DNA of 64,000 nucleotides. Source: Hexactinellida sp. DTS-2022 (taxonomy: Eukaryota > Porifera > Hexactinellida). Positions 12,057 through 57,571 of this stretch are shown piece by piece. The stretch is from assembly GCA_028753945.1 (NCBI GenBank), contig JAPNXP010000014.1:310001-374000 (forward strand). Reading direction: 5' to 3'. Under the pieces are notes generated by a model. That model ran no database searches and had not been told where the DNA came from. It worked only from the letters and a program-made list of their open reading frames with translations. Position 1 is the first letter of the stretch; the number at the start of each line of letters is the position of its first letter. Made by a program: the position numbers and the translations under genes.

Positions 12057-13520
12057 ATGGACCCCGAATTAAGCTCCTTGATTGACAAACACAATCTCTC
12101 TCACAAAAGGCATACATTCACTACAATGGGAATAAAAACCTTCAAACAAATGGCCCAAATACAAAGTTCAGCTCTGAAAGAAGATCATTTATTCAACTAT
12201 GCAGATATTCGAGCTTTTGACACTTTTCGAGATATTTGTATACAAAAATTGGAAGAAAATGAAAATTTACAACAAAAAGTAAAAAAACGTGCTTCTACTA
12301 CAACATCACCAGGTAGACAAATACTTACAGAAATCGGAGTTGCAAGAAAACCAGAAATTCCTGGGATGATCCCACCTCCACAAATGACAAATCCTCCTAT
12401 GATTGATCCCATTACCCTTCCAATGTACCCACAATCAATTAGTGAGAGACCTAATATATACATGGATCAACCTCATTCAATGCATATTGAAGCTCAATAC
12501 AGTCCACGTATAATTGCTCCTCCATATTCAATGTTTTCACCACCCCCTCAAACTCAAACTACATTTCAAACATACGAACAATGTTTTCATACAATGCAGC
12601 CAGAAGAACACCACTATACGATTGGCCCTGACCACCAACAAAGATACCAATCACTACCAAGCTCCCAAAGGATATATTACCCAGAATTGAGACCTCAAAT
12701 TCATCCACAAAGGCCCCCAATTTGTCCATTGACCTCAGATTTATTCCAATCTACTGGAGAGCCTAGAATTCACTTTCGTGATTATCAGATTTATCATGGT
12801 GACAACTTACACGGCATTGGACTAATCTTTACAAATGAAACATTTACAAATCATCCCAAGAGAGATGGTGCTAAAAATGATGAAAATAATTTTCAATCTT
12901 TATTTATGATGATGGGACTTAGAATCTATAAATATCCTGAAAAAACAACTGATGAAATACTTAATATTTTGTCGACTTTTGCCAGAGATGACTTATCAAA
13001 TATTGAATTGTTTGCGGTTGCTTTTAGCACGCATGGCGACAAAGGAGATTTCCTATACGGTAGTGACAATAAGCCTTTCTCCCTCTATAAACAAGTTATA
13101 AATATATTCAAAATAAGCAACTGTGTAACACTCAGGGGTAAACCTAAGCTTTTCTTCATTCAAGCATGCCGTGGTGATAAAACTGATTCAACAATATCAT
13201 CACAAGGTATACAAGCAGATTGCGATGAAAGGGTTAGTGTAACTCTTGAATCAGATTTCCTTGTAGCTCACTCTTCTGTGGAAGGTTATAAGGCTTATCG
13301 ACATGTAAACGAAGGTTCTTGGTTTGTTACACAATTGAAACGAGCTTTTGATATGTATGCAGATGAGTGTACAATGTTAGAGATTCTGTCATTGGCAAAT
13401 CAACTTGTAGTTGAGAAATCGATAATGTCAAGTGATGGCAGTGATAGGTATATACAAACTTGTCAGTTTGAGTCAACACTCACAAAACTACTAAGAATAA
13501 AACCTGTTAGGTTAAACTAG
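12057..13520 (+). CDS. Caspase A: SAM-like prodomain plus C14 caspase domain
   Basis: Intronless, 487 residues from ATG 12057 (the frame stays open to an ATG at 11955, which would add 34 unconserved residues). Residues about 5-65 look like a SAM helix bundle (LIDKHNLSHKRHTFTTMGIK, then FKQMAQ and ADIRAFDTFRD), not a CARD or DED. A Pro/Gln/Tyr-rich linker spans about 95-250. The caspase fold follows: GLIFTNETF, the Arg of KRDGAKND, catalytic His326 in FSTHGD, Cys371 in FIQACRGD, and the small-subunit NEGSWFVTQL loop. The active site looks complete. Caspases are Cys proteases cleaving after Asp in apoptosis and immunity. It is first in a same-strand run with B and C. The SAM assignment is by eye and should be held at moderate certainty. 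Confidence 0.9.
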   Translation: MDPELSSLIDKHNLSHKRHTFTTMGIKTFKQMAQIQSSALKEDHLFNYADIRAFDTFRDICIQKLEENENLQQKVKKRASTTTSPGRQILTEIGVARKPEIPGMIPPPQMTNPPMIDPITLPMYPQSISERPNIYMDQPHSMHIEAQYSPRIIAPPYSMFSPPPQTQTTFQTYEQCFHTMQPEEHHYTIGPDHQQRYQSLPSSQRIYYPELRPQIHPQRPPICPLTSDLFQSTGEPRIHFRDYQIYHGDNLHGIGLIFTNETFTNHPKRDGAKNDENNFQSLFMMMGLRIYKYPEKTTDEILNILSTFARDDLSNIELFAVAFSTHGDKGDFLYGSDNKPFSLYKQVINIFKISNCVTLRGKPKLFFIQACRGDKTDSTISSQGIQADCDERVSVTLESDFLVAHSSVEGYKAYRHVNEGSWFVTQLKRAFDMYADECTMLEILSLANQLVVEKSIMSSDGSDRYIQTCQFESTLTKLLRIKPVRLN

Positions 13521-13936
13521 CAAGTTTAATACAAACTGAATTTTATACTTTTACATACATAGCTCAATTGTTTACATTTTTACAATTCTTTAATAATTAT
13601 TTTTGTATTTAGCTTCTGATTTATATATTTGACTTTCTAACTACAATCAACTCCAGTTATATCGTAATGGTTCGGAATTTAATTCAATTGAAGGTAATTT
13701 AAGAGCATTCTACTATTTCGATATAACGAGAGTTGACAGTCAAGTTCAATTTAATTTCCCGCTTAAAATAAGAGTATAACTATCTGTTGGAAAAACAAGC
13801 GCTGATTAACAAAAAATCCTTAAAATTATATTTCATATGTTAGATTATCAAATGGGGGAAAAAAACAAAAGTGCCAATCAACAACAAAATTCCTAAATTG
13901 TATTTTATATGTTAGATTTATTATAAGCAGAGTCAA
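13521..13936. other. Caspase A-B spacer with a degenerate tandem duplication
   Basis: A worn inverted repeat pair (AACTCCAGTTATATCG and CGATATAACGAGAGTT, about 13650-13737) is a family 5 relative. After it, 13795-13850 and 13865-13925 are two diverged copies of one segment ending TATATTTCATATGTTAGATT / TATTTTATATGTTAGATT, just before the caspase B start. Confidence 0.6.
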
Positions 13937-15070
13937 ATGGCAAACAGATATCCATCATATTGTCCCATAAACCACCCTGGTTTTCAATTCCCACAAAATA
14001 TAGAACAAATTCCATGGACGTATTTCAACCCAAGAACACCACCACCCAGCAGACAAGTTCATATTTATTGCAGTACGAATTCAACATATAATAATTACAA
14101 TCCAGATTATAACCTTGATGTGTCAAATCAACGAGAATTGAGCCGTCAAAGCTCGAAATTGTACAAAAGTGTATTTCCACTTGCGATGCAAGGAAATATT
14201 CAATTTGTGACATCAACGCCGCCACCTTCTTCCTATTCTGATTCCTATGATGATTGTGATGAAATTTATAGCGACAAACTTTCGTATTCAGATAAACGAA
14301 TTTTGGATGCAAATCTTGAGTATTATATGCCAGAATCTAATAGGGGCATTGGTGCTGTTTTTATAAATGAATCGTTTCCAGATCGACCCAAAAGGCCTGG
14401 GGTTGGAAAAGATAAAGAATATCTTAATAACATTTTTTCAATGATGGGTCTGAAATTTGAAATTTTTCTCGATAAAACGAGAGCTGAAGTTTTAGCTGAG
14501 TTAGAAAAATTAGCAAAATTTGCAAAACATTCGCATTTTGTGCTTTGTGTTGCATTCAGTACTCACGGTGATACCAATGATACCATATATGGTAGCGACG
14601 GTAGGGAAATATCTTTACGAACAGACATTACACCTATTTTTAAACCGATTAATTGCAGAGCTTTGGAAGGAAAACCGAAAGTATTTATCATACAAGCGTG
14701 TCGTGGTGATAAAATTGATTATATAGGACCTAATGTATATTCGGACGCTTGTGAAAAAGATGAATTAGTTTCATCCGAAACCGATTTTCTAATTTCCTAT
14801 GCCTGTGCACCAGAATACATGGCATTTCGTACTGAGAGAGAAGGCGCTTGGTTTTTAAGCGAATTATATAACGCGTACAAAATATATTCAGAAAAGTACC
14901 ATTTTATGGATATTCTAACTTTAACTAATCAACGCTTGATGTTGCGAGCTAAAAATAGCAAAGAATTCAACAAAAATATAGCGCAACCTTCTCATATAGA
15001 GTCTACTTTGAAGAAATTTTTGTGGCTCAAATTCAACAGTTCTATTACCTGGAACCCTTTAGGTTTGTAA
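13937..15070 (+). CDS. Caspase B: caspase domain with Pro/Ser/Tyr-rich N terminus
   Basis: Intronless, 377 residues from ATG 13937. The first 130 residues are Pro/Tyr/Ser/Asn-rich with no SAM, CARD or DED that I can recognise. The caspase domain runs from GIGAVFINESF (about 137) to the C terminus: Arg in KRPGVGKDKE, His210 in FSTHGD, Cys255 in IIQACRGD, and the small-subunit loop REGAWFLSEL, where Ala replaces the usual Ser of GSWF. Closest in this array to caspase A (shared MMGLK and HGD segments). It ends with a short unrelated tail after FLWLK. Catalytically plausible. It could be an executioner-like caspase, but a disordered prodomain does not settle that. Confidence 0.9.
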   Translation: MANRYPSYCPINHPGFQFPQNIEQIPWTYFNPRTPPPSRQVHIYCSTNSTYNNYNPDYNLDVSNQRELSRQSSKLYKSVFPLAMQGNIQFVTSTPPPSSYSDSYDDCDEIYSDKLSYSDKRILDANLEYYMPESNRGIGAVFINESFPDRPKRPGVGKDKEYLNNIFSMMGLKFEIFLDKTRAEVLAELEKLAKFAKHSHFVLCVAFSTHGDTNDTIYGSDGREISLRTDITPIFKPINCRALEGKPKVFIIQACRGDKIDYIGPNVYSDACEKDELVSSETDFLISYACAPEYMAFRTEREGAWFLSELYNAYKIYSEKYHFMDILTLTNQRLMLRAKNSKEFNKNIAQPSHIESTLKKFLWLKFNSSITWNPLGL

Positions 15071-15373
15071 GTTTAGTATTATTTTGATGTAATTTAGGAC
15101 AAGTATAAGGTGAGTTTTCTTGAGACAAAACATTAAGGGACAAAATTCTTAAAAACTAGACACACCTTCAGACTCTTTTAAACACCAAATTTTGCAGTTT
15201 TGTAATACAAAAATAAGGTCTGTCACGTATTAGTTAACTTTCCTTTTGAAAGCGTTATATAACGTTTGAATGCCCCTAACATTTTTAGACAAAATTTTTA
15301 CCATCTTAAAAGAAGGATGATAAAAAATGCCGAATTTGAATACTAAAATAATTCAATAATTCTGTATTTCTAG
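15071..15373. other. Caspase B-C spacer / possible caspase C 5' region
   Basis: Contains a partial TTACGTAA-class repeat (about 15196-15270: GGTCTGTCACGTATTAGTTA, GAAAGCGTTATATAACGTTT). No convincing first exon for caspase C: the GTGAGT site near 15112 gives the wrong phase with a stop codon. Confidence 0.5.
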
Positions 15374-16332
15374 TTAATTCTCAAGACTTGCCAGCATTTG
15401 ACCAATCAAGTTTTTATCGATTCGACGGTCCCCAAGCATTAAGGTCCATTTCCAGGCCAGAAAGCCCAACACTTTTGTTCTCTTCAAGTGATGATACTCC
15501 CATAAATTCCTTGAACAGCGAAGTGTACGATTGGAACAACAAAAATAGGTTTATAGGCACACTAGTGCAAGAAAATGATAAACGCTACTTAAAATTCGAT
15601 AGTCCTATGATCGATTGTTTGCCTGTTTACAATTTGGATAAAGGAGAGTATACTGGGTTGGGGATAATAATAGTCAACCATGCTTGTGGGAAAATAAAGC
15701 GTGCAGGTTCAACCTTGGATCTTGCGAATTTTATATACATTTTTGAAGGTTTGAAGTTGAAAGTAGTTGTCATGGAAAATATTAAAAATATGATATATTC
15801 AGGTGAATTGGGTTTGGAGGGAGAAATAAAAAAAGAGATTGAAAATAACCTCGAAATGAACAGTTTTTTCCTAGCAATATCAACGCATGGGGATGGAGAG
15901 TGTGGTTTAGCTGGCTATGATGGAATTTCTGTTGAATTATGTTCGATTCTTTCGCTTTTTAGAGTAAAAAAACTTGCTGGAAAACCTAAAATTGTGATCA
16001 TACAAGCTTGCCGTGGTACAAATTCGGATATTCAAGTTAGAGTTCAGGCTGATAGTGTCCCAAAAGTTGCCACACTTGAAACAGACTTGTTAATAGTGTA
16101 TTCATGTGCACATGGTTATAAAGCCTGGCGTGATGACGTAAATGGTTCTTGGTTTGTCGTTTCACTACGGAAATGTTATGAGAAATTAAAGGGACGATCG
16201 AATATTCTAGAATTATTTACAGCCACGACAAATTATATGCTTAATGAATTCGAGTTTCAAAATCAAATGGGGATTTGTTATAAACAGCCGGCAGAAATTA
16301 GATGCACACTTAGTGCACTGTTAAACATATAG
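15374..16332 (+). CDS. Caspase C: caspase domain, 5' end unresolved
   Basis: The open frame has no ATG at its 5' edge. A plausible acceptor TTTCTAG ends at 15373 and would need an upstream exon ending with one base of a codon, which I could not find. The next in-frame Met lies about 80 codons in. The caspase domain is intact from GLGIIIVNHACG: ISTHGD, IIQACRGT, and VNGSWFVVSL in the small subunit. The N-terminal 65 residues shown are Ser/Pro-rich, without SAM. Loops are shorter than in A and B: the first catalytic-subunit helix region is GSTLDLANFIYIF with only a weak match to the usual substrate-pocket Arg segment (KIKRAGS). It could be a real gene with a small unseen first exon or a copy that has lost its start. 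Confidence 0.75.
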
Positions 16333-17077
16333 AAAAGTATTTTTATAAGAAATTAACTGAAAATATAAATTATTTATAAATGCCTTTTTGAATATTTCTT
16401 AAGGTGAAAGTTTTTTATTTTTATTATATATTATTTCTCTATTTATTTTCCTATTTACGTGTTATTATGGTGTGAAGTTAAATTGCTCTTTGCAAAAGTC
16501 AACAAGGCAAATTATTTTATTTCCCGACACCTTTTCAATATAAAAACTCGGCTTCGCAAAAGTTAATTTTTGATGTTTAAAAAATTCATTAAATGTGTTG
16601 GTCGAGATATAAGTAATTCATAAGTAACTCCTTAGTAATTCCTTAATCTGATGGAAAGTTTCACCTAGTACTGACGATACAAAGTGCATGACATCAGAGT
16701 GGATCAACATTTGTGACCCATCGATCCATGGTCTACTATAGGGGTTTATCTAGGTGCCTGGCCGGCACTTTTAGGTTGCAGCCAGGCATCGGTTGAGGTG
16801 CAAAAGTGCTTGCAGTGTAAATGTGTAATTCCATTTTGGTGCCAGACCTCTAACAAGATTTTTTGGCAATATAAATTCCTAGATAAATCCCTGTTTGGTA
16901 GCTTACATATTTAGCTCCTTTAAATAATGCCTCAACATTGAATTATACCGATTATCTATATCGGCTAACACCTTTAGGGTGCCATAAATATTAACTTTTA
17001 TAAAAAAGGTGCCAACCAATATATCCTAGATCTGTAATTAAATTAAATATATCTCACTAATTCTAGCCTCTACACAG
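16333..17077. other. Caspase C-D spacer with three MITE remnants
   Basis: Holds a family 7 hairpin (about 16522-16613), a separate element with AGGGGTTTATCTAGG and CCTAGATAAATCCCTG ends (16739-16894), and a short family 7 remnant (about 16968-17030). No coding sequence is supportable. Confidence 0.7.
16739..16894. repeat. MITE with TTTATCTAGG terminal inverted repeats (hAT-like)
   Basis: Left end AGGGGTTTATCTAGGTGCC, right end TTCCTAGATAAATCCCTG; the arms are inverse with one mismatch. The interior is unusually GC-rich (GGCCGGCACTTTTAGGTTGC). Flanks give no clear target duplication. Single copy in this window. Confidence 0.75.
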
Positions 17078-18355
17078 ATGGATGCCCATATTATACATCT
17101 ACTCGAAAAGTACAATCTTCAAGCGTTTCAAGAGAAATTCCAATTGAATGGAGTTAATACTTTGCAAGATTTAGCAGAGATTGATAAAACAGCTCTCCGA
17201 TCACGATTCTTAATGCTAGAAGCGGACATTAATAAATACGAGAAATTACGAGATGAATGTATCCTATCTACCAAGTTGCCACCAGCAGGTTTTCTTCCCC
17301 CTTCTATGCCAATAATCCATTCTTTGCCTTCAATGTCATCTTTGCCAACAATGTCATCTTTGCCAACAATGTCATCTTTGCCAACAATACCTTCAATGTC
17401 TACAATGCCATCAATGTCATCATTGTCTGTTAGCCCTCCTATTGCTACTGCTAGTAACATATCTTCACAGTCACCGATTATTATGGATAGAAGCCTTGAG
17501 GCCATTGGACATTCCATTCGACCTGACTCGTTTGTTGTTGTTGACTCTGAAACTCACAATCCTATTGGCGAGGTTCATGAGCAGGGAGGTGCTTATTTTA
17601 TGAAACGTTTTGAAACTGGTGGATTAAAGCAACAAACTAAGATTCAAAAATACGATTTGGAAACATCAAGTGGGTGTAAAGGATTAGGCCTCATTTTTGT
17701 GGTAAAACTTTTTGATAATGGTCACGTTAGACATGGAGCTGTTGAGGACGTTTCAAACCTTGAAAACCTTTTTCTTAAAATGCATTTAAAAGTAATTAAA
17801 TTCTTAAATCCTTCGCGAGAAAAAATATTGTATGAGATCGCCAACCAAGTTGCAATTAATTGGGAAAGTAAAAGTTTTTTCATTGCAATCTCAAGTCATG
17901 GGAAAGAAGGAAACCAAATTATATGTGCAGATAATAAACTAGTGTCCGTAGCCGAGATCCTTGCATCCTTCCAAATACCCCCGTTACTAGGGAAACCAAA
18001 GGTATTTATAATAGAAGCTTGTAGGGGAGATAAACACGACTCAATAATCCTAACAGACAACTATTTTCCAGATAAGATTAATACTTATCCGGCTGCAACG
18101 AAAGAAAGTGATATTTTAGTGGTGTATGCTTGTGTGCCTGGATATGTAGCTTATAGAGAACCAAATAAAGGATCTTGGTTTATAACATCGCTTTGTCAGG
18201 CGTATGATCTGTTAGAAGATGAAAAAGTGGATTTCGTTGGAATATTAACCTATGCTAATTATATTATGTTGCAAAAGAATTATGGGAAGGAAGAAAATAT
18301 AAATAAACAGCCAATGCACTTAGAATCAACCTTAAGTAAACTCCTTATAATTTAA
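17078..18355 (+). CDS. Caspase D: SAM-like prodomain, EACRG active-site variant
   Basis: Intronless, 425 residues from ATG 17078. Residues 4-65 are the clearest SAM-like domain in the array (LLEKYNLQAFQEKFQLNGVN, then TLQDLAEIDKTAL). A low-complexity linker (about 75-125) is built from an 18-bp tandem repeat encoding Ser-Leu-Pro-Thr-Met-Ser. The caspase domain begins near GLGLIFVVKLF, with VRHGAVED holding the pocket Arg, His274 in ISSHGK, and Cys315 in IIEACRGD. The pentapeptide is EACRG, not QACRG: Glu313 replaces a Gln conserved in most active caspases and lining the substrate pocket, so specificity or activity may differ. The small-subunit loop NKGSWFITSL is normal. Over 90 percent alike to caspase E from MDRSLEAI onward, including the 3' flank. 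Confidence 0.9.
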   Translation: MDAHIIHLLEKYNLQAFQEKFQLNGVNTLQDLAEIDKTALRSRFLMLEADINKYEKLRDECILSTKLPPAGFLPPSMPIIHSLPSMSSLPTMSSLPTMSSLPTIPSMSTMPSMSSLSVSPPIATASNISSQSPIIMDRSLEAIGHSIRPDSFVVVDSETHNPIGEVHEQGGAYFMKRFETGGLKQQTKIQKYDLETSSGCKGLGLIFVVKLFDNGHVRHGAVEDVSNLENLFLKMHLKVIKFLNPSREKILYEIANQVAINWESKSFFIAISSHGKEGNQIICADNKLVSVAEILASFQIPPLLGKPKVFIIEACRGDKHDSIILTDNYFPDKINTYPAATKESDILVVYACVPGYVAYREPNKGSWFITSLCQAYDLLEDEKVDFVGILTYANYIMLQKNYGKEENINKQPMHLESTLSKLLII

Positions 18356-18477
18356 AACAAACAAACAATATTTTTGAATTCGTAATTTCTTTATTCGCAT
18401 TTTATATACTAACTTATTATTGAAAATACAACTAACTTTTCTATTCAAATTATGGGGTAAAGATATACAGTTAGCGT

Positions 18478-18914
18478 TTACAATCCCGGACTATTTTAAC
18501 AATCCCGGGATTTCGGGATCTGATTTTTCAAAATCCCGGGATCCCGGGATTAGAAATACATTAATAATATATTGTCATGACTCAAGAGTATAAAAATATA
18601 GTAGATTTACAGACAACTCCCAGTTATAACGAAGCCGGATATTATATCTAGTATTTTGATGAATTATTTAATTAAAAATGAATGAATAATGAATTAAGAT
18701 GAACAAATATTGAATTATTTTCTTTCTTAAGATTGTTTCGGATAAAAATAGATCGCCAGCCTAGTTTTCAAAACGCAATACGTATCATGTTAGAGATCTA
18801 ACATAGAATAATGGATTATTAACCTGGTGGTCGGGATCCCGGGATTGGAAAATCAAATCCCGGGATTCAATCCCTAGTGAAATAGCATCGGGATCCCGGG
18901 ATTAAAAACCCTAT
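18478..18914. mobile_element. Non-autonomous element with repeated ATCCCGGGAT ends
   Basis: The left subterminal block has GATTTTTCAAAATCCCGGGA and similar; the right block has TCGGGATCCCGGGATT twice, ending TTAAAAACCCT. The blocks face each other over an AT-rich core. AGGGTTTTTAATCCCGGG-type ends resemble hAT or related elements, but no target duplication is clear. Confidence 0.65.
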
Positions 18915-18915
18915 A

Positions 18916-19094
18916 TACAGTATATACTCTCGTTAATAGGAACACGGATAAGGGAAATATCGGTTAAGGAGTACAAGGTTAATTCCCATAGCCTATACAA
19001 GTGCATGCAATTGACTCCGGTTAATACGAATTTCCGGATAATACGAACATATTAAGACGGTCCCCTGGTGTTCCTATTAACAGAGTATATTGTA
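18916..19094. repeat. MITE family 2 directly upstream of caspase E
   Basis: TACAGTATATACTCTCGTTA start and CAGAGTATATTGTA end. The following 28 bp to the ATG match the leader of caspase G, which is also preceded by a family 2 copy. Confidence 0.85.
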
Positions 19095-19122
19095 TATAGT
19101 GTTTAGTGTTTCCTGTTAGATA

Positions 19123-20253
19123 ATGGCTACCAAAGAAGAGCCTAGTTTAGGGGAAAACGAGTTAATCGAAATAACTTCAGATTGGGAGAGAAATCTCTTG
19201 GAATTGTTGGACAGATTACGCATTAAGACGGTCGGTTTGATAATGTACCTTAACATGCGTGGCATAAAAACACTAGAAGATTTCTACAATGAAAAACCAG
19301 ACAATATGCAAAGGTTTCTCAGCCCAGTTCAATTTGAGAAATTGAAAAATAATTCAACGAATAATATGGATAGAAGCCTTGAGGCCATTCTACATTCCAT
19401 TCGACCTGACTCGTTTGTTGTTGTTGACTCAGAAACTCACAATCCTATTGGCGACGTTCATGAGCAGGGAGGTGCTTATTTTATGAAACGTTTTGAAACT
19501 GGTGGACTTAAGGAGAACATAATTAAGCAACAAACTAAGATTCAAAAATACGATTTGGAAACATCAAGTGGGTGTAAAGGATTAGGCCTCATCTTTGCGG
19601 TAAAACTTTTTAATAATGGTCACGTTAGACATGGAGCTGTTGAGGACGTTTCAAACCTTGAAAACCTTTTTCTTAAAATGCATTTAAAAGTAATTAAATT
19701 CTTAAATCCCTCGCGAGAAAAAATAATGTCGGAGATCGCCAACCAAGTTGCAATTCATTTGGAAAGTCCAAGTTTTTTCATTGCAATCTCAAGTCATGGG
19801 AAAGAAGGCAACCAAATTATATGTGCAGATAATAAACTAGTGTCCGTAGCCGAAATCCTTGCACTCTTCCAAATACCTCAGTTACTAGGGAAACCAAAGG
19901 TATTTATAATAGAAGCATGCAGGGGGGATAAACACGACTCAATAATCCTAACAGACAACTATTTTCCAGATAAGATCAATACTTATCCGGCTGCAACGAA
20001 AGAAAGTGATATTTTAGTGGCGTATGCTTGTGTGCCTGGATATGTAGCATATAGAGAACCAAATAAAGGGTCTTGGTTTATAACATCGCTTTGTCAGGCG
20101 TATGATCTGTTAGAAGATGAAAGAGTGGATTTCTATGGAATATTAACCTATGCTAATCATATTATGTTGCAAAAGAATTATGGGAAGGAAGAAAATATAA
20201 ATAAACAGCCAATGCACTTAGAATCAACCTTAAGTAAACTCCTTATAATTTAA
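19123..20253 (+). CDS. Caspase E: mosaic of caspase G N terminus and caspase D protease
   Basis: Intronless, 376 residues. Residues 1-80 (MATKEEPSLGENELIEITSD, then a SAM-like LLDRLRIKTVGLIMYLNMRG) match caspase G almost exactly. From MDRSLEAI (about residue 84) to the stop it matches caspase D, and the D match continues through about 120 bp of 3' flank. The linker repeats of D are absent, and there is a five-residue insertion (ENIIK) relative to D. Catalytic His225 is in ISSHGK, Cys266 in IIEACRGD; the EACRG variant is shared with D. The active site is otherwise complete. The simplest origin is recombination or gene conversion between D-like and G-like copies, recent because few substitutions separate the halves from their sources. 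Confidence 0.92.
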   Translation: MATKEEPSLGENELIEITSDWERNLLELLDRLRIKTVGLIMYLNMRGIKTLEDFYNEKPDNMQRFLSPVQFEKLKNNSTNNMDRSLEAILHSIRPDSFVVVDSETHNPIGDVHEQGGAYFMKRFETGGLKENIIKQQTKIQKYDLETSSGCKGLGLIFAVKLFNNGHVRHGAVEDVSNLENLFLKMHLKVIKFLNPSREKIMSEIANQVAIHLESPSFFIAISSHGKEGNQIICADNKLVSVAEILALFQIPQLLGKPKVFIIEACRGDKHDSIILTDNYFPDKINTYPAATKESDILVAYACVPGYVAYREPNKGSWFITSLCQAYDLLEDERVDFYGILTYANHIMLQKNYGKEENINKQPMHLESTLSKLLII

Positions 20254-20598
20254 AAACAAACAAACAATATTTTTGAATTCGTAATTTCTTTATTCGCATT
20301 TTATATACTAACTTATTATTGAAAATATAACCAACTTTTCTATTCAAATTATGGGGTAAAGATATACAATATATATACTCTGTTAGTAGGAACACAGATA
20401 AGGGAAATATAGGTAAGGTCACTAAGGAGTACAAGTTAAAATGTTAGTTACTAATGCTTTGGATTTGTGATAAATAATTTGATAAAGTAGGTCACGCTTT
20501 TTCGAGCATTTGTAATATAAAAAGGATGGTCTGTCACACATTTATAAATACTTTTTAAAAATCATTTTATTTCAAATGTAACATTTTATTAGGATAGT
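20254..20598. other. Caspase E-F spacer
   Basis: The first about 120 bp duplicate the caspase D 3' flank. A family 2 left-end fragment (about 20373-20430) and a TTACGTAA-class fragment with GGATGGTCTGTCACACATTT (about 20487-20545) follow. Confidence 0.65.
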
Positions 20599-21807
20599 AT
20601 GGCACAATATATGGACACTCCAATGGACGACCAAATTCGCCATATTTTCATCAAACACGAATTGCAATCCAGATATGAACTAATATCAGAATTAGGTGTC
20701 AACACACTGTTGGACGTCACAATTGTAAGTACAGAAGATATGAAAAAAGTCTATAAATTTACTTACATAGAGCAACGTAAACTACGAAACATACAAATCG
20801 AATGTGCGGAATTATTGGGTATCGATCCATTAAAATCCGATATTAATATTGCCACTCCTATACATACACAAACTACACAGTCATTTCTATTAGAAAGCTC
20901 GCATTTCAATATCAGCGAAGATACTGAATCTATTGACGATGTTTATCAATCTTTGTTAACTAACTTACCAGATTTACAACAAGAACCAGTTAGTTTAACT
21001 GGATACGAAACCCCACCTACACATCAACCTATAGACCAGTATCCTATTGTAAAGAATAAAGATGGTTTTATCGGGGTTGGCATGTTGATTATAAACAAGG
21101 ATTATTTGGGAGCTAAATCTACCAGATTAGGTGCTGAACAGGATATGAGCATGATAAAAGAAGTTTTCACCGACATTGGACTTTACATTGATGAATCTCT
21201 AGTATTGATTAATGAAAATGGTTCTAATCTTTTGAAAAAAATCGAGAAAATTTTGGAGTCTCTTAGTCAATTACTTGAAGATACGTGTTGTATTTTCGTA
21301 GCTATTTCTTCGCATGGAAATGAGGACTCGATTTGTTGTGTAGACGATACAGAAATTTCAATCATAAACGAACTTCTACCACTCTTCAAAAACGATCGTT
21401 GTAAAGCACTCCTTGGAAAACCTAAAGTTTTCTTAATACAAACATGTCGAGGAGAAGAAATTGATCATGAAGTAGTAAAAGCTGATCATATTGGTGAAAA
21501 TCCTTTCTGGCAAAAGCAACTAAGGAATGTATCTACTATAGAAACGGATATTGTACTTGGGTATGCATGTGTTTATGCCTATACTGCACTCAGGGATGTG
21601 GAGAAAGGTTCTTGGTTTATTCAAGCATTCAAGCAAGCTTATTTCCAAATGAAATATAGGGATTTTTGTGATATTTACAGCATTTTGACACTCACAAACC
21701 ATTTAATGGTTTCAGAATTTGAACACAAATTACGTAAACAACCAAGTCAGTTCACTTCAAGCCTTACTCGCTCACTTATTTTACCAAAAAATGATAAACA
21801 AATTTGA
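20599..21807 (+). CDS. Caspase F: SAM-like prodomain, QTCRG active-site variant
   Basis: Intronless, 402 residues from ATG 20599. Residues about 12-72 are SAM-like (FIKHELQSRYELISELGVNT, then a TEDMKKV helix). A Ser/Thr/Gln-rich linker precedes the caspase domain, which starts near GVGMLIINKDYLG. The pocket Arg is in TRLGAEQD, His239 in ISSHGN, and Cys283 in LIQTCRGE, with Thr in place of the usual Ala of QACRG. The linker after the Cys is long and acidic (DHIGENPFWQK), a likely processing region before the small subunit VEKGSWFIQAF. Not closely paired with another array member. Likely active, given the conserved dyad. Followed 317 bp later by ATG10 on the same strand. Confidence 0.9.
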   Translation: MAQYMDTPMDDQIRHIFIKHELQSRYELISELGVNTLLDVTIVSTEDMKKVYKFTYIEQRKLRNIQIECAELLGIDPLKSDINIATPIHTQTTQSFLLESSHFNISEDTESIDDVYQSLLTNLPDLQQEPVSLTGYETPPTHQPIDQYPIVKNKDGFIGVGMLIINKDYLGAKSTRLGAEQDMSMIKEVFTDIGLYIDESLVLINENGSNLLKKIEKILESLSQLLEDTCCIFVAISSHGNEDSICCVDDTEISIINELLPLFKNDRCKALLGKPKVFLIQTCRGEEIDHEVVKADHIGENPFWQKQLRNVSTIETDIVLGYACVYAYTALRDVEKGSWFIQAFKQAYFQMKYRDFCDIYSILTLTNHLMVSEFEHKLRKQPSQFTSSLTRSLILPKNDKQI

Positions 21808-22123
21808 CTCTTTAGTTTGAAATGAACTTACACGTATATATATTTATATTTATAATTGCACTATTAATAATTAAATATTGTAAAAAAATTCCGTTTATAT
21901 CTAAATCTCTGTAAGTTTTGCAATGAAAGTACCATGGATACGCTATGGACTATCTGTATTACAAACTCTCTAATGTTACTGTCAGGCCTTTACACAGTGG
22001 TTGTCTTGTTAATATAATTTATGCAAATTCTATTGAATAAAAACAAAATAGGTCCACAAATATGTGTATAAAAAGGAAAGAAATTTAAAACTGTATTTGC
22101 CAATAATTAGCATATAAACTGAG
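21808..22123. other. Caspase F-ATG10 spacer, nothing recognised
   Basis: AT-rich sequence with no repeat family or ORF that I can support; presumably the 3' end of caspase F and the ATG10 promoter. Confidence 0.5.
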
Positions 22124-22702
22124 ATGATAAGTGAAGAAGATTTCGTTCGAGAAATTAAATATTTCCATTCAATTTCCGAAAAAATCAACGACCAATGGCA
22201 AATCCATAAACCAGACAAAAATGCATTTTACCAAACACCTTGGCTTTCTAAAAAGTACCTAATTAAACTGAAATCAGAAAAGACAATAGTGAAAACCGTT
22301 GATGATATCCCGTGTGATTCTTCAGAAGCAATAAAACCAATGACAGAATATATTAACGGAGATTATCACTTTGTATTCAGTCATATTTATAAAGTACCAG
22401 TTCTGTTCTTTAACCTGTCGTATCCTAATGGTGTTAAACTGAAACTGGAAGAAGTATGGGAGCTTAATAAAGAGGTGATTGGGAATTCTGATAAATGGTC
22501 ATTCATTACAGAAGACGAACACCCAATTTTATCGATTCCTTATTTCTGTTTGCATCCTTGTAACACGGGAAAATTAATGGACACAATATTACAGCCAAAT
22601 GAAGGGCCAACGTCCTATCTGTTAATGTGGTTAAGTGTAGTAGCCACTGTGATGAAATTAGAAATTCCAGTAACCCTATACTGTAGTTACTATAAAATAT
22701 GA
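22124..22702 (+). CDS. ATG10: Ubiquitin-like-conjugating enzyme ATG10
   Basis: Intronless, 192 residues from ATG 22124 (human ATG10 is 220). The protein has the E2-like core with HFVFSHIYKVPVLFFN strands and the diagnostic active-site segment IPYFCLHPCNT, making Cys146 the catalytic residue. It is followed by the family C-terminal helix and strand YLLMWLSVVATVMKLEIPV. ATG10 accepts ATG12 from ATG7 and passes it to ATG5 during autophagosome formation. It sits on the same strand between caspases F and G, so the caspase expansion has happened around it. The N terminus (EEDFVREIKYFHSISEKIND) fits the family start, supporting this ATG. Confidence 0.9.
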   Translation: MISEEDFVREIKYFHSISEKINDQWQIHKPDKNAFYQTPWLSKKYLIKLKSEKTIVKTVDDIPCDSSEAIKPMTEYINGDYHFVFSHIYKVPVLFFNLSYPNGVKLKLEEVWELNKEVIGNSDKWSFITEDEHPILSIPYFCLHPCNTGKLMDTILQPNEGPTSYLLMWLSVVATVMKLEIPVTLYCSYYKI

Positions 22703-23057
22703 GTTAATTTGAATAGCAAATATTATACACGTATAGTCATATTGAATTTGTATATTATAACATTTGTTGAATATAATTGGCATAAAGAAATGGTTAATTG
22801 GGAGACATAAATATTAAATAAAATTAGCTTTCAGCTCTTAACTTAGAACTTTAAAATTAATTTTATATAATAATACAGTGGACTCTCATTAATATCGGTT
22901 AAGGAGTACAAGGTTTAATTCCCCTAGCCTATACAAATGCATGTAAGTGACTCCGGTTAATACGAATTCCGGATAATACGAACATATTTCTACGGTCCCC
23001 TGGTGTTCCTATTAACAGAGTATACTGTATATAGTGTTTAGTGTATCCTGTTAGATA
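22703..23057. other. ATG10-caspase G spacer with family 2 MITE
   Basis: AT-rich sequence followed by a family 2 MITE (22874-23029) that lacks about 20 bp near its left end. The last 28 bp before the caspase G ATG match the caspase E leader. Confidence 0.75.
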
Positions 23058-24164
23058 ATGGCTACCAAAGAAGAACCTAGTTTAGGGGAAAACGAGTTAA
23101 TCGAAATAACTTCGGATTGGGAGAGAAATCTCCTGGAATTGTTGGACAGATTACGGATTAAGACGGTCGGTTTGATAATTTACCTTAAAATGCGTGGCAT
23201 AAAAACACTAGAAGATTTCTACAATGAAAAACTAGACCCTATGCAAAGGTTTCTTACCCCAATTCAATTTGAGAAACTGAAAACGGAAATCGAGGATAAT
23301 CAAATGAACTTGGCGTGTAAAAGTATCGACATTTGCAAGCATAGGATGTCCGTTTCTGACTATGATAAAAAAGTAGTTTTGACCAAGCCTGATTTTCCAA
23401 AACAGAAATTGGGAAAGGAAGACGGTTTTTTCAACTATGATATGAAAAAAGATTTCGAAGGTTACATTGGCAGAGCAGTTATAATCGTAAACAAATATTT
23501 CAACGGTTCGACACGGGAAGGCGCCGAGAAAGATCGAGAAAATCTCCAAAATATGTTCACCAGTTTACATGTAGATTTCACAGTATATGAAAATAAGAGA
23601 TCAGAGGAGATGAAAAATATTCTGAAAGATTTTGCCAATTTGGCGAAGGAAACTTCGATTGTGTTTGTAGCCATTTCAACTCACGGAGGGGAGAATAATT
23701 CGATCCAAGGTGTTGATAATGCGTCAATTAAAATCGATGATGTAATCGATTTATTTCAGAAAAATGAAAAATTACGGGGGAAACCCAAAGTATTCTTAAT
23801 CCAGGCTTGCAGGGGAACTTTAGTAGATTTCTCTTCGGCACATTCTTCAGATAATTATGAATCCGGTGCCTACGAATGCGATGCTCAACCAACAGAACAA
23901 ACTTTTGCTTCTAACACCAGTGACGTATTAATTGCATACGCAACTTCTAACAAACATAAAGCATGGAGAGATAAAACAAATGGGTCTTGGTTTATTACGG
24001 AGCTCAAAAAAACATTCGATAATTTCCCGGATAATCATTTGATTGATATACTCACGTTATGTGCCCATAGTGTTATTCGTAACTATCAAATTGTGAATAA
24101 CGGTCAGATAGCCACTGAAGCTTGTAATTTTCACTCAAGTCTTACAAAATTTATTTACTTTTGA
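23058..24164 (+). CDS. Caspase G: SAM-like prodomain caspase
   Basis: Intronless, 368 residues from ATG 23058. Residues 1-78 are nearly identical to caspase E and SAM-like (WERNLLELLDRLRIKTVG, then KMRGIKTLEDFYNEK). After residue 80 the protein differs from E and has its own protease: IGRAVIIVNKYF, pocket Arg in STREGAEKD, His209 in ISTHGG, and Cys251 in LIQACRGT. The inter-subunit linker has many Ser/Asp/Glu, and the small-subunit loop is TNGSWFITEL. The canonical QACRG and the whole fold suggest an active enzyme. The 5' leader and upstream family 2 MITE are shared with E, so the E and G starts descend from one duplication. Confidence 0.93.
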   Translation: MATKEEPSLGENELIEITSDWERNLLELLDRLRIKTVGLIIYLKMRGIKTLEDFYNEKLDPMQRFLTPIQFEKLKTEIEDNQMNLACKSIDICKHRMSVSDYDKKVVLTKPDFPKQKLGKEDGFFNYDMKKDFEGYIGRAVIIVNKYFNGSTREGAEKDRENLQNMFTSLHVDFTVYENKRSEEMKNILKDFANLAKETSIVFVAISTHGGENNSIQGVDNASIKIDDVIDLFQKNEKLRGKPKVFLIQACRGTLVDFSSAHSSDNYESGAYECDAQPTEQTFASNTSDVLIAYATSNKHKAWRDKTNGSWFITELKKTFDNFPDNHLIDILTLCAHSVIRNYQIVNNGQIATEACNFHSSLTKFIYF

Positions 24165-24486
24165 ATTACATTCTAACTTGTTTATCTCTATTTTTGAAGT
24201 TTGAAAGTATGTTTTTGCAAATAAAATGCTCAATTTTATTAATAACAAATTGTTTATATATAAATTTTGTTATGAACATTCAAGGGACTACAAATTGTGT
24301 TCATAATAAATATAGACTTCATAATAAGCGAACTCAACATAATACAAACCCTATGTAATTGTTAAATAGGGACCATAAGGCTTGTTCATAATAAAGTCTT
24401 TATAGTAAGCAGACCTGACATAAATTAACAAATTTACTAGCAACTTTATTATACAACTTACGTAGTTTAAAACAAAATAGGACAAC
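24165..24486. other. Caspase G 3' flank with partial family 3 MITE
   Basis: A family 3 MITE lacking its left end runs about 24264-24421 (TGTTCATAATAAATATAGAC, ending AAGCAGACCTGACA). No gene is seen. Confidence 0.7.
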
Positions 24487-24795
24487 TTACTGTTCTAATT
24501 CTTCATCTTTAATCCCTTGCTTTTCAAATGTGAAAAAAGCTGCTCCTAACAAACTTCCACCTTTCCAAAGCCCCCATCTTTGTTCTCTCATTTTCAACAA
24601 ACACCTCATCCATTTTTTCCTTCTCTGTTGCCACAGTTGTGCCCAAGTTAGAATGTAAATAACATTCCGAAGTGACCATGATATAGACTTCAATTGTATG
24701 AAATTTGGGAATATATTTATCTTGGAAAACGAGTGAAAAAGGTTTTTCTTGAAGATATTGTTTGAAATAATACGTGTTGTTGTTTGTGAAGTCAT
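24487..24795 (-). CDS. Doubtful small ORF, 102 residues
   Basis: An intact ATG-to-stop minus-strand frame (24795 to 24487). The product is basic with Ser/Thr/Asn and Phe and no acidic residue in the first 75 residues, which would suit a mitochondrial targeting sequence. It ends with a short hydrophobic stretch and an acidic tail (FFTFEKQGIKDEELEQ). I do not recognise a family. It could be a small mitochondrial protein, one exon of a larger gene, or chance. A neighbouring frame is also open over its first third of coding bases (KWMRC region), which lowers confidence. Confidence 0.3.
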   Translation of the reverse strand: MTSQTTTRIISNNIFKKNLFHSFSKINIFPNFIQLKSISWSLRNVIYILTWAQLWQQRRKKWMRCLLKMREQRWGLWKGGSLLGAAFFTFEKQGIKDEELEQ

Positions 24796-25312
24796 CTAAT
24801 GTAAGTACAGTAGACTCCGCTTAATAGAGCCACCGGTTATTTGGGTCAACTTTTCACATTTTCGGTTAATAGAGCCACCGGTTATTTGGGTCAACTTTTC
24901 ACATTTTCGGTTAATAGGGTTCTCTGTTTTTGGGTCACACTCGGACCAAAAACCAAAGTGAATTTAAAAGTGACCCAATTAAGCGGTCAATAAACACTAT
25001 CCAATTATTTTGCAACATAGTATTCAATTCAAGTAAAGGAATTATCAACGGAAAACACGGTCGGTTAATAATCGGTAATAAAGTGATACTGTATTTGTAA
25101 AATCTGGTTCTATTTTAAAAGAATAATTTGAAGGAATTTCAGCTGACTTATAGAATTAACAAGAAAGGAAAATAAATAACTTACACAAAATAGCAAACAA
25201 ATACCTGAATTATCTAAATGCGAACTAAAATGTAAATTCAAATTCAATAATAAAATGAACACATCGAATTTGGATTCACAAGGACAAGTTAACTATTATT
25301 GTACGCAACTAT
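24796..25312. other. Spacer with expanded family 4 MITE
   Basis: A family 4 element (24806 to about 25093) has an internal tandem copy of about 52 bp (GAGCCACCGGTTATTTGGGT twice). The rest is AT-rich caspase H 3' flank. Confidence 0.7.
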
Positions 25313-26373
25313 CTAAACCAGTGGTTCCGTTCTTTTACGAAAGCGAAGAAGTTTCTTCAAAGTAGATTGATATGAAACAGTTTGAGTTATATTTCCTTTA
25401 CAAGTCTTCGTTACTGGACATTCCTTTCTAATAACCAAATCGATGCATATGGTCAGGATATCTACAAAATGCATATCCTCATAAGGCTTGTAATGTACGC
25501 AAAGACAAAGTAATTTGACAAACCAAGACCCATTCACAGAATCTCGCCAGGATTTACAACCTGCACCAGTTGAATATGCAATCAGCGTATTACTCATGCC
25601 AGTGGCTATATTGGAAGTTTCTCGAATTTCTTGTGAGAGTGAAAAAGACATTTTTTCAACAATTCTCTCTTCAGTTTGCCCCCCTCTACAAGCCTGTATC
25701 AAGAATACTTTAGGAACATTCGATAAATCACCAAAATCAAAAAATTTAAAAATGTTTCGAAGAGAAATCATTATCTCATCTGTCCCATAAATATCACCCT
25801 GTTCGCCCCCATGAGTAGAAATAGCTACCATTAGCACGGAATAACGTTCTTCAGCGCACAATTTAGCAAACTTTTTTAATTCTTCCCACATTTCTTCAGC
25901 TTTCAAATTAAAATGGCTCCTATCCTTATAATCAATTGCACATTTGTCAAAAATTGCTTGGAAATTTTCTTGATCCTTTTCAGCACCAGCTCTTTTTAGT
26001 TTTATATCTACAAAGTCTTTATTTACAATTATTATGCCTAAACCTGCTTTGCCTTCATCAGAATAGGTTAGTTTGTAGTCAGTTTCTATAAGAATATGAA
26101 ATTTAGATTACTAGACATCTATGAAAAATGTATAAGTTGAGTCAATTGAATAAATTTCGTTGGAATCAAGATGTTGACCAGAATTACAAAAAATATTATA
26201 CATAGCAAAGTAATAAACTAACTTTCCAAGGCAATTACTTTAATAGGTCAAATAGACAGTATAAACTTACTCTTTTGAATGTCTTCAATGGGTTTTGATT
26301 TTGGTGAATTTATGAAGGGTTTGTGATCTGACTCAGGAGCGAAAGGCTCTACTGGCTCTTCATTGGAACACAT
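25313..26373 (-). CDS. Caspase H: short-prodomain caspase, two exons
   Basis: Two minus-strand exons, 26373-26271 and 26085-25313, join at phase 1 (GTAAGT donor, TTATAG acceptor) into 291 residues. The N terminus is a 34-residue acidic/Pro-rich leader (MCSNEEPVEPFAPESD) with no SAM, CARD or DED. The caspase domain starts at GLGIIIVNKDF; the pocket Arg is in LKRAGAEKDQ, His126 in ISTHGG, Cys167 in LIQACRGG, and the small-subunit loop is VNGSWFVKLL. The active site looks complete, and the short prodomain resembles an effector type. It is head-to-head with caspase I, whose exon structure and leader are homologous (EEPVEPFAPESD against EKEPVMQSDTRP), so the pair arose by inverted duplication and only I decayed. 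Confidence 0.9.
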
Positions 26374-26687
26374 ATTGAATTAAGAATCTGGGTTAATTAA
26401 TGAGGAATATTGATGGGATATATCCCTATTTATAATGTAATGAGTCTCAACATAATACGTATATTACTGTGACCTTTTGGAAATAATATCTCAAATGACT
26501 ACAGAATCAAATGACATTACTTAAGTTAATTAATTCTATTTTAATATCGAAATATTATTTAACAAATAATATATGAGAATTAAGGCAATCTGCATAAATT
26601 AAAACACAAGGCTAGCTGTATGCATATATACGGTATATATATTGTCTGTATGTCCCGAGTTGATTGAACTCCATTTCTTAATAGAAA
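26374..26687. promoter_or_regulatory. Divergent promoter region of caspases H and I
   Basis: A 314-bp AT-rich gap between the two divergent start regions, with TATATACGGTATATATATTG near 26628. It is the only space for both promoters, so shared control is likely (inference). No MITE is visible. Confidence 0.5.
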
Positions 26688-28191
26688 ATGGCTACTAATG
26701 ATAGTATTAAAGGTGAGTTAATTAATTTATGTCCAACGATTATAATGTGTCGGTATTTTCCGTTTTATCGTGGAAAATATATAATTTTTAAGATATTGAG
26801 AAACATAATTAAGTTTCAGACAACTGATTATTGATTAGTTTGTAATTAATAGAAACTGGTTGGAAAAAAAGGTTATCAAACAGAATAAAAAGTTCTTTCC
26901 ACAGGAGTACTGATTCTCCAGCTACAGCCACAGAAAAGGAACCAGTAATGCAATCTGACACAAGACCACCTACAGAATTCGCGACAAGAACCAAAATACA
27001 ACCAATAGACATTGATACTATTGCTCAAAGTAAGTTAAATTAATTTCCATTGATTTTCTATTCAGAGACATGGAGAATTTGAATTTTTATTTTTTATTTC
27101 AAGCCAAATCAGTTAAATTAGGCCAGTTCAAATCACTGTCTTTGTTATTTTTCCATGCAAGAGAATTTCTATGTAGGTTGATTCGGTTAGTACAGTGGTT
27201 CCCAACCTGGGGTCCACGGATGTCAATAAGGGTCCACAAAATCTCCAGATTTGGGATGGGAGGGGGTTCATTATAGAATGTGTGATATTTGCTATAGGGG
27301 GTCCACGGTTGAAAAAGGTTGTGAATCGCTTGGTTATTACGTAGAATGGAATCACACGTGTTCACCAATGAACCGAAATTTTTGTTCTGTATATGTTTAA
27401 AGCATTGATGTAAGTAATGTAATTATTCTTATTCTCGCTTAGGTGTTGATTCACTATTCTATCCTCTCAAACGAAATGAATCGAAAGTAGGAAAAGGCAT
27501 AATTATTGTCAACGAATCATCTGAGAATCATGATGAAGAGTCAAGAGTAGTAGGTGCTGAAAAGCATAAAGAACAATTTGAAGAAATTTTTGATAAACTA
27601 GGAATTGATTATAAAGATAGGAGTTTCCTTAACCTCACAATTGACAAGATGTGGAAGGAATTAAAGGAATTTGCCAATAGTGAAGTACCAGAAGATTGTG
27701 TGTTTTTCGTCGCCATCTCTACTAATAGTGAACAAATGGGAGAAATAACTGGTGCAGACAATTTTGTGATTCCTCTCGAGCATATTTATAATTATTTCTA
27801 CAAAAACATAAATCTATTGACCATACCCAAAGTGTTTCTGATAGATGCTAGCAAAGTTATCCCGATCCCGAAAAGTGAGTTAGAATCAGACATGTTACCA
27901 CCTAAAGCAACAGCAATAATAGACCGTTTTAAAGTACAAAGTTTTATTTCTGCTACTTCGATTAGCGATACTCTAATTGTTCAATCGTATTTAGAAATTT
28001 GTGAAGAAGAGACAGGTTCTGGGTTTATACAAGAGTTACTTAAGACCATTGAAAACCCACTATATGAAAACTTACATTTTGTCGAAATCCTGACCTTGTG
28101 TAATGGATCTATAATGGAAAAATTTCCAGGTTTTTTTACATCGATTCACTCAACTCTTAGGTTGAAACTCAGCTTTAAACATTTTCATTAA
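26688..28191 (+). CDS. Caspase I: catalytically dead caspase homologue
   Basis: Exons 26905-27029 and 27443-28191 join at phase 1. From the in-frame ATG at 26948 the product is 276 residues. The caspase fold is retained (GKGIIIVNESS, VVGAEKHKEQFEEIFDKLG, VFFVAISTN, IPKVFLI, FVEILTLC). The dyad is lost: the His-Gly of STHG is now STNS, and QACRG is now DASKV, so no nucleophile remains. GSWF is GSGF. The frame is open over the whole domain, which suggests selection as a pseudoenzyme (c-FLIP-like role is inference). A further 25-bp candidate exon at 26688-26712 (ATG plus GTGAGT donor) would splice into exon 2 one base out of frame and reach a stop, so the start is uncertain. Intron 2 holds a hAT-like MITE. 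Confidence 0.75.
27192..27337. mobile_element. hAT-like MITE (CAGTGGTTCCCAACC type)
   Basis: Left end CAGTGGTTCCCAACCTGGGG, right end GGTTGAAAAAGGTTGTGAATCGCTT. Flanking octamers GGTTAGTA and GGTTATTA match at seven of eight positions, as expected for a hAT 8-bp duplication. A relative lies at about 50226-50300. Confidence 0.8.
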
Positions 28192-28912
28192 TTAAAATAG
28201 CTATAATTCAGGGCTTTTTAATCAACTTTTGGATTAGTATTCAGGCTATACTTTGATACTGTGTATTGTGTTTATATCTGGAGGAATTGTTATGTTTGTA
28301 ATTATTCATAGTTATTGTGTGAATTATAGCAGATTTTGGAAATTATTATGCAAATTGATAAAACAAATTCAAAAGTTATAAAAGGAGTGGACCCCAGTTT
28401 AGTGTAAGATAAAAAAACTTTCCATAAATGTTTACATTCCTACATTTATACGTACATAAATAAATAAATATATTAAATTACTTACTTGAGTCCAAAATTT
28501 CTTGAAGAGAAAAATAATTTGTGTAAATATAAAAGAACAGTTTACATTTCAAACAATTATAATTCTTTTATACTTGTCGTTCTGCCTATTGTTCTACCCG
28601 ACCAATCAAATCGCTACCTCTCTGACGCATTTCTCAACCCACTCAAAAGAAATTCTATTTATTGACATTTCCCAAATAATATTTTCGTTTATAGTTTAGC
28701 TCATTTATTATAAATTTGTTTATTAATTTATTAATTAAATAAATGATTACAATTTACAACCCCTGCCAAATTTCATTTTGACAATTTTTACGAAACTATT
28801 ACTAACTAGATTCGTATTATCCGTATTTTATTATCCGTATTTTCAGAAAAAATCTGGATGATATACAATTTATTTATTTTACCTCGTTTACAAACTAGAT
28901 TTGGATTATACA
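28192..28912. other. Intergenic, AT-rich, nothing recognised
   Basis: About 720 bp of very AT-rich sequence with a small open frame (28502-28699) that has no recognisable features. No MITE ends are visible. Presumably caspase I 3' flank and the promoter of the giant gene. Confidence 0.55.
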
Positions 28913-56551: not shown

Positions 56552-57571
56552 ATGTTTGTTGTTTACAGAAAATTAGTTGTTTACCCTTTGCGAAATACTT
56601 TCACACATTTCTCAACTTTACTAACGAAACCCCCTTCCCCTTCAAGGGACCGAATCCGATTATTTTTAGAAAACTTTCCACCAAAACAAATACAAAATTC
56701 ACCTATAAAAGCACCAAAAATACGCAAAATACAAATATTAAATTCTCAAATAAAAGACTATGAATCTGAATTAGAAGAATTAAGAATTTTAACCGAATCC
56801 AGCCCAGAATTATCCCAATTAGGCCAACAAGATTTACACACAATCACCCAACAAATTAACACTTTACACACAGTAATACTAACTATGCTATACAAGTTAG
56901 TACAAAATACATTTCCTAACGAATGTATTATGGAAATACGTTCAGCAACCGGCGGGGCTGAATCTGCGCTTTTCGCGCGGGACATTTATAACATGTATGT
57001 GCTAATGGCTAACAAACGTAAATGGGTGTTAGAAGAATTCGATGTGAACACGACAGAATTGGGAGGTGTCAGATTTGTGTCGTTTTGTGTCGCGGGAGAT
57101 AAGTGTTTCGATTCGCTACGATTTGAGGCCGGGGTACACAGGGTACAGAGAATACCGTACACCAGTGGCGCCGGTAAGATTCATACGAGCACAATTACAG
57201 TAGCGGTTCTGTCTGTGCCGAGAGATGAAGAGGTCAGTTAGTATCCATGGTTTATTCGATGTGTTGGAAAAGGTGTTGGCTGATATATAAGTACAGTAGA
57301 CTTTGTTAATAGGAACACCAGGGGACCGTCTTAATCTGTTCTAATTATCCGGAGTTTGTATTAACCAGAGTCACTTGCATGCATTTGTATAGGCTAGGGG
57401 AATTAAACCTTGTACTCTTAACCGATATTCCCTTATCCGTGTTCCTAATAACAGAGTTTATTGTATGTAGTTATCTGTTAGTAAGGTATTTTGTGTGTTA
57501 GCTAGTTTGATAGCTAGTTAGTTAGCTAATTAGTTAATTACTTAGTTAGCTAGTTAGCTAGTAAGTTAGTA

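What the first reader, a model, noticed from the sequence alone, without database searches (positions are those of the whole stretch)
12057..28191. Nine caspase homologues in 16 kb, five with SAM-like prodomains instead of CARD/DED
Caspases A, D, E, F and G begin with a 60-70 residue helical domain carrying a Gly-(Ile/Val)-(Lys/Asn)-Thr-(Phe/Leu) motif after a KY/KH-N-L helix, the usual look of a SAM domain. Initiator caspases known to me recruit through CARD or DED. SAM domains oligomerise as head-to-tail polymers, so a SAM-caspase would offer a different activation platform. What I see: the motifs and the intact catalytic dyads. Known: the SAM fold signature and the caspase family. Inference: the SAM domain drives clustering and activation.
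Basis: partly seen in the sequence, partly recalled or inferred. Interest (0 to 1): 0.88.

Follow-up and report, generated by a model that had tools for sequence, protein, structure and literature searches.

The report
Glass-sponge caspases with SAM-fold prodomains
A glass-sponge chromosome carries a cluster of nine cell-death protease domains, five of which start with a predicted SAM-type docking domain where other animals use a death-fold domain, which suggests a different way of switching caspases on.

The parts
12057..13520 (+). Caspase A: SAM-like prodomain, about 180-residue linker, C14 domain with FSTHG and QACRG
12057..12257 (+). SAM-fold prodomain of A (residues 1-67), sequence relative of D's prodomain
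   Evidence: (E 4e-5)
13937..15070 (+). Caspase B, no SAM; first half of a possible two-caspase protein with C
15373..16332 (+). Caspase C, 5' end uncertain; homologous to the second half of Oopsacas P0008
17078..18355 (+). Caspase D: SAM-fold prodomain plus C14 (ISSHG, EACRG)
17078..17284 (+). SAM-fold prodomain of D; the part modelled, residues 1-69
19123..20253 (+). Caspase E: chimera of a G-type prodomain and a D-type protease
19349..19353 (+). Recombination junction in E between G-like and D-like sequence
20599..21807 (+). Caspase F: SAM-like prodomain plus C14 (ISSHG, QTCRG)
20617..20817 (+). SAM-like prodomain of F
22124..22702 (+). Autophagy_act_C (ATG3/ATG10-type) gene inside the cluster, not a caspase
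23058..24164 (+). Caspase G: second type of SAM-like prodomain plus C14 (ISTHG, QACRG)
23085..23315 (+). SAM-like prodomain of G; the part modelled, 77 residues
25313..26107 (-). Caspase H, catalytic exon only, no SAM found upstream
27418..28191 (+). Pseudocaspase I: catalytic His and Cys lost

Best explanation
This is a lineage-specific tandem array of caspases in a probable glass sponge (Hexactinellida) in which A, D, F, G and the chimera E carry an N-terminal SAM-fold domain in the place that CARD, DED or death domains take in known initiator caspases. The most likely working is as a SAM-recruited initiator caspase: SAM-SAM contacts, homotypic or with another SAM protein, bring zymogens together, the protease domains dimerise by proximity and cleave themselves, and they then cut downstream targets. 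Shown here: domain order, intact catalytic and specificity residues, a predicted SAM fold that is strong for the A/D/F type and moderate for the G type, recurrence of the prodomain in relatives, and one natural prodomain swap. Inferred: self-association, recruitment, autoactivation and any role in cell death.
Against: No SAM model is near its Pfam cut-off in the nine proteins (only D hits one, SAM_EPH at 12.8 bits against 27); among prodomain rows the best SAM E-value is 0.0061 (5 of 11 A/D/F-type rows hit SAM_EPH) and 0.12 (1 of 8 G-type rows). Profile comparison with own-genome families goes the other way: A/D/F type against SAM 14.6, CARD 16.1, DED 9.6; G type against SAM 13.1, CARD 18.0, DED 14.2. 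Shuffles reaching those local scores, of 60: A/D/F 2 (SAM), 1 (CARD), 26 (DED); G 3 (SAM), 0 (CARD), 0 (DED). Only the fold prediction favours SAM; no Foldseek match of either model has E under 0.001, and for G the best probability is 0.38. In G the SAM (79/69/71/41/43/28% to P0121-P0126) is less conserved than the protease (81/79/79/55/54/50%). The usual complementary charges of polymerising SAMs are missing in 10 of 11 rows. No other locus with this SAM subtype was found in the genome, so no partner is known. There are no expression or biochemical data.
Confidence: 0.58

Rival explanations
1. The prodomains are shortened, divergent death-fold domains (CARD-like) that merely model as SAM, so these are ordinary CARD-type caspases.
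For: hhalign leans to own-genome CARDs over SAMs for both types; for the G type CARD (18.0) exceeds all 60 shuffles, and for the A/D/F type in global mode too. The Gly-Ile-x-Thr-x-x-(D/E) stretch resembles CARD helix 3 (recalled). A CARD-bearing caspase exists elsewhere in the genome (L002). The G-type model has six helices counting an N-terminal extra one.
Against: The A/D/F domain has about 65 residues and five helices in the D model, starts at Met1 and is followed by a low-complexity linker. Foldseek and VIA rows shown are SAM entries for D, and SAM entries come first for G.
Confidence: 0.14
2. The SAM domain is real but does not drive clustering. It targets the caspase to a membrane, receptor or scaffold, or binds lipid or RNA, and activation is by an upstream protease.
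For: Many SAMs do not polymerise (recalled). The charge pattern is not that of a polymer in 10 of 11 rows. The genome has 45 SAM_1 matches over the cut-off that could be hetero-partners. A long low-complexity linker separates SAM and protease in A and D.
Against: The position equals that of recruitment prodomains in initiator caspases (recalled), and the tandem-SAM relative P0006 fits multivalent assembly.
Confidence: 0.3
3. The cluster is a decaying tandem family with little function, and the prodomains are relics.
For: Copy I has lost its dyad. E is a recombinant that loses the end of the last prodomain helix of G. The G-type SAM is less conserved than its protease.
Against: Eight copies have intact active-site motifs. 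In A, SAM and protease are conserved in relatives while the linker drifts. Relatives of A, G and C are reported with equal longest-contig lengths in several assemblies.
Confidence: 0.05

Closest known systems
Initiator caspases with CARD, DED or death-domain prodomains (caspase-8/10, -9, -2; amphioxus caspases)
   Same: C14A protease domain with dyad and S1 arginines; small helical prodomain; flexible linker; P0006 has tandem prodomains like the twin DEDs of caspase-8 (recalled)
   Different: The prodomain is predicted to be SAM, not a six-helix death fold. The protease domains lie outside a 100/99-supported group that holds the 11 caspases sampled from outside glass sponges plus nine of the 14 other own-genome caspases put in the tree.
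ASK1-3 kinases and SARM1, enzymes of cell death or stress switched through SAM assembly (function recalled)
   Same: SAM coupled to an enzyme acting in death or stress signalling; ASK3 SAM is the best match of the G-type model and SARM1 entries are among D's matches
   Different: Kinase or NADase instead of a caspase; SAM position and subtype differ
Oopsacas minuta hypothetical protein LOD99_3799 (P0004) and 'Caspase-3' (P0008)
   Same: P0004 is an A-type SAM-caspase, 38% identical over 99% of A; P0008 is B and C joined
   Different: Neither carries a SAM label in the listing. The Oopsacas genome paper's main text holds none of the terms caspase, apopto-, SAM domain or cell death (term search).
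Amphioxus and bivalve caspase expansions
   Same: Amphioxus: expansion to 45 caspases by domain recombination and shuffling (PMC3196919, abstract start and passages)
   Different: Amphioxus prodomains are of DD, DED or CARD type (PMC2575513, passages). A whole-word search for 'SAM' gives 0 in PMC3196919 and in the bivalve caspase paper PMC7836458.

Membership tests
Caspase (peptidase C14A) | C14 domain above curated cut-off | tested here: met
   9 of 9
Caspase (peptidase C14A) | His/Cys dyad in SHG and [QE]xCRG motifs, and S1 arginines (positions recalled from caspase-3) | tested here: met
   8 of 9 by motif patterns; copy I fails
Caspase (peptidase C14A) | Asp-specific protease activity | not testable with these tools
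   No biochemistry possible
SAM domain, A/D/F type | Five-helix bundle with long fifth helix matching known SAM structures | tested here: met
   Model of D, pLDDT 89.4; 50 of 50 rows shown are SAM entries in each; A and F were not modelled and stand by homology
SAM domain, E/G type | Same fold | tested here: inconclusive
SAM domain | Pfam SAM model above its cut-off | tested here: not met
   None of the nine proteins; prodomain rows give E-values only, best 0.0061; genome-wide SAM_1 and SAM_2 searches list no match in the cluster
SAM domain | Mid-loop/end-helix polymer interface | tested here: inconclusive
   Charge polarity seen only in F, 1 of 11 rows
Death-fold domain (CARD/DED) | Six-helix bundle of about 80-100 residues | tested here: not met
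   D type, by helix count of the model: five helices in 65 residues. The G-type model has six helices counting an N-terminal extra one, so for G this stays open.
Death-fold domain (CARD/DED) | Profile similarity to CARD or DED | tested here: inconclusive
   CARD scores are above SAM scores and, for the G type, above all 60 shuffles, as is DED; all hhalign probabilities are under 5%

The most novel reading that the evidence does not exclude
Glass sponges, whose tissues are largely syncytial (recalled), have rewired part of their caspase activation from nucleated death-fold polymers to SAM assemblies. Since SAMs are reported not to supersaturate (PMC13012725, passages), this would give a graded, locally confined death or remodelling signal instead of an all-or-none one that could run through a shared cytoplasm. 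The array diversifies by swapping prodomains between protease domains, as caught in E.
Probability: 0.25. Interest if true: 0.88.

Novelty: new variant of a known kind. Interest (0 to 1): 0.68.

Why it matters
Known caspase platforms (apoptosome, DISC, PIDDosome, inflammasome) use death-fold assembly (recalled). The eLife paper PMC13012725 (passages read) states that SAM domains cannot supersaturate and remarks on the dearth of SAM polymers in innate immune signalling. A natural caspase family with SAM in the prodomain position would make the question of whether a nucleation barrier is needed for caspase activation directly testable, with the G/D chimera E as a ready-made domain swap. It also adds a class of caspases in an early animal lineage for whose apoptosis machinery I found no description: term searches of the main texts of the Oopsacas and Aphrocallistes genome papers find neither caspase nor apoptosis.

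Tried and rejected
Sequence-only routes to SAM led nowhere: Pfam, profile searches of the PDB, which gave no SAM, and hhalign against profiles of eight SAMs, four CARDs and four DEDs from the same genome, where CARD came out ahead (one search is void for this because six minus-strand loci were read on the wrong strand, corrected). A search of 5.8 billion proteins with D residues 1-80 scored 20 candidates, none with E up to 10; the relatives came from full-length A and G. No death-fold structure is among the rows listed, which does not exclude that fold. Hidden SAM exons upstream of C, H and I: none found. Other own-genome caspases with this prodomain: none in the ORFs held and none by whole-genome search. 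Trees: SAM-bearing proteases do not form one clade, so a single gain with losses or later swaps cannot be told apart. The joint B-C splice was not settled: reading the sequence, the best acceptor and the best donor are out of phase with each other. Papers: the Mya arenaria paper's SAM passages concern p53, not caspases; the amphioxus network paper lists TIR-SAM and LRR-caspase but no SAM-caspase in the passages read. Two papers and most of the 16 were seen as listings only.

Full report
What is there. The window is bases 310001-374000 of contig 6 of a 112.4-Mb, 18-contig genome. Its nearest named protein relatives are from Oopsacas minuta, a hexactinellid, so it is read here as a probable glass sponge; the species is not known to me. 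Between 12057 and 28191 lie nine stretches that match PF00656: A, B, C, D, E, F and G on +, H on - and I on +, with an Autophagy_act_C gene between F and G. A, B, D, E, F and G are single open frames from a Met. C, H and I lack a clear start and probably have upstream exons. The genome-wide search for PF00656 lists 64 matches, 8 of them in this cluster; copy I is not among the 64, so that count is a lower bound.

Catalysis. The His motif (STHG or SSHG), the Cys motif ([QE]xCRG), the p10 arginine before G[SA]WF and the S1 arginine before G are present in A-H, 8 of 9; copy I matches none of the four patterns. Which arginines shape the S1 pocket is recalled from caspase-3. Eight proteases are therefore expected to be active and Asp-specific, and one is a pseudocaspase.

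Contrary results. In the nine full proteins only D hits a SAM model, SAM_EPH at 12.8 bits against a cut-off of 27. Of 11 A/D/F-type rows, 5 hit SAM_EPH (best 0.0061) and one each SAM_2 and SAM_CEP-1_C. Of 8 G-type rows 1 hits SAM_EPH at 0.12, while 3 hit DUF5659, best 0.0057. Profiles of eight SAMs, four CARDs and four DEDs from the same genome, compared with the two prodomain profiles, give local scores of 9.6-18.0 against shuffled means of 9.4-10.0. CARD is ahead of SAM for both types (16.1 against 14.6; 18.0 against 13.1). CARD and DED exceed all 60 shuffles for the G type and CARD does so for the A/D/F type in global mode; SAM never does, with 2 and 3 of 60 shuffles reaching it in local mode and 8 and 2 of 60 in global mode. 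All hhalign probabilities in these comparisons are under 5%. So sequence does not settle the fold and leans away from SAM; structure prediction speaks for SAM, for one type clearly. No own-genome CARD was modelled as a control.

Conservation. Full-length A finds relatives covering 98-100% of it in P0001 (77%), P0002 and P0003 (54%), P0004 from Oopsacas (38%) and P0006 (32%); P0005 and P0007 also begin with the domain. All but P0004 and P0008 among P0001-P0008 are unnamed ENA records; that they are glass sponges is inferred. Of the 145 proteins listed (120 of 170 shown; 25 of 25), none carries PF00536 or PF07647, while CARD, DED and one PYRIN occur; P0013 carries PF22569, which I did not look up. 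The SAM-caspases themselves are unlabelled, so this does not exclude SAM elsewhere. In A, SAM identity to P0001/2/3/4 is 91/70/76/42%, linker 64/31/33/18%, catalytic 85/68/70/51%. In G, against P0121-P0126, SAM is 79/69/71/41/43/28%, linker 71/51/42/20/13/20% and catalytic 81/79/79/55/54/50%: here the SAM is kept better than the linker but less well than the protease. Relatives of A and G share longest-contig lengths in three assemblies (480363, 125798, 1250588), C too in the first, and P0004 and P0008 share 549444. I infer a conserved cluster; contig identity was not checked.

A natural prodomain swap. E matches G over 18956-19348 (93.9%) and D over 19354-20368 (94.8%), with the junction in five bases. 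Over 294 codons against D there are 13 synonymous-only and 18 non-synonymous codon differences (dN/dS 0.45); over 75 codons against G, 6 and 6 (0.27). The frame is open and weakly constrained by these small counts.

Phylogeny. In a tree of 50 C14 domains (235 columns), for which I chose 14 of the own-genome caspase frames outside the window, the 11 caspases sampled from outside glass sponges (one of unstated organism) and nine of those 14 form one side of a branch with support 100/99. The cluster copies, their relatives and this genome's NHL-fused, L028 and L041 caspases lie on the other. SAM-bearing copies are not one clade: A groups with its relatives (99/98), G with H and I (100/98), and D and E with C and F (94/86, not starred). 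L041 and L004 have long branches and uncertain places.

Mechanism. Prodomain, linker and protease is the plan of an initiator caspase (recalled). I propose SAM-mediated assembly, proximity dimerisation and autocleavage. Assembly is inferred only. The acidic mid-loop and basic end-helix of known polymers (recalled) appear in F alone among 11 rows, so hetero-recruitment by another SAM protein is a serious rival; 45 SAM_1 matches over the cut-off exist in the genome, and searches with this subtype found only the cluster copies. P0006 with two SAM-like repeats suggests multivalency.

What is in print. Searches with caspase and SAM terms returned no paper that I could recognise as being on a SAM-caspase: searches (16 papers; 2; 0; 2), judged by titles and abstract starts except where passages were read, in an open-access library that lacks most subscription journals. 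Main-text term searches of the Oopsacas and Aphrocallistes genome papers find no caspase or apoptosis. PMC13012725 (passages) says SAMs cannot supersaturate and are rare in innate immune signalling, which is why this architecture matters.

Noticed in passing
L026 (G000:C1:16160000-16168000); also L002, L003, L006, L007: Other caspases of this genome sit in large open frames (1548-1859 aa). L026 has a Roc match (E 1.1e-9), a weak CARD and the protease at its C-terminal side; L002 has a CARD over the cut-off before the protease; L003, L006 and L007 (read in part only) have COR-A matches below the cut-off. Possibly ROCO-caspase fusions.
   Followed up: partly
L029, L032, L033: Caspase domains followed by NHL/beta-propeller repeats in one open frame.
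   Followed up: no
window 13937-16332; P0008: The Oopsacas 'Caspase-3' record (673 aa) is B and C in one protein, and the part of C upstream of its protease aligns to the Oopsacas linker, so B and C may be one two-caspase gene with an intron near 15067-15373.
   Followed up: partly
P0006: An unnamed relative with two SAM-like prodomains in tandem before the caspase.
   Followed up: partly
L001:865-2256, L004:553-2229: Two own-genome caspases have longer helical N termini that look DED-like by eye, with no Pfam hit besides C14.
   Followed up: no
window 28862-37591: Single open frame of 2909 codons with fibronectin type III domains, no intron needed.
   Followed up: no
window 18911-19094, 22891-23029, 52766-52944, 57291-57470 and others: Dispersed short repeats of about 110-200 bases recur through the window, also just upstream of E and G, and may have aided the E recombination.
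   Followed up: no
DED search hits on C1, C10, C13, C16, C18: Many open frames of about 1100-1200 aa carry weak DED-like matches below the cut-off; possibly a large receptor family.
   Followed up: no
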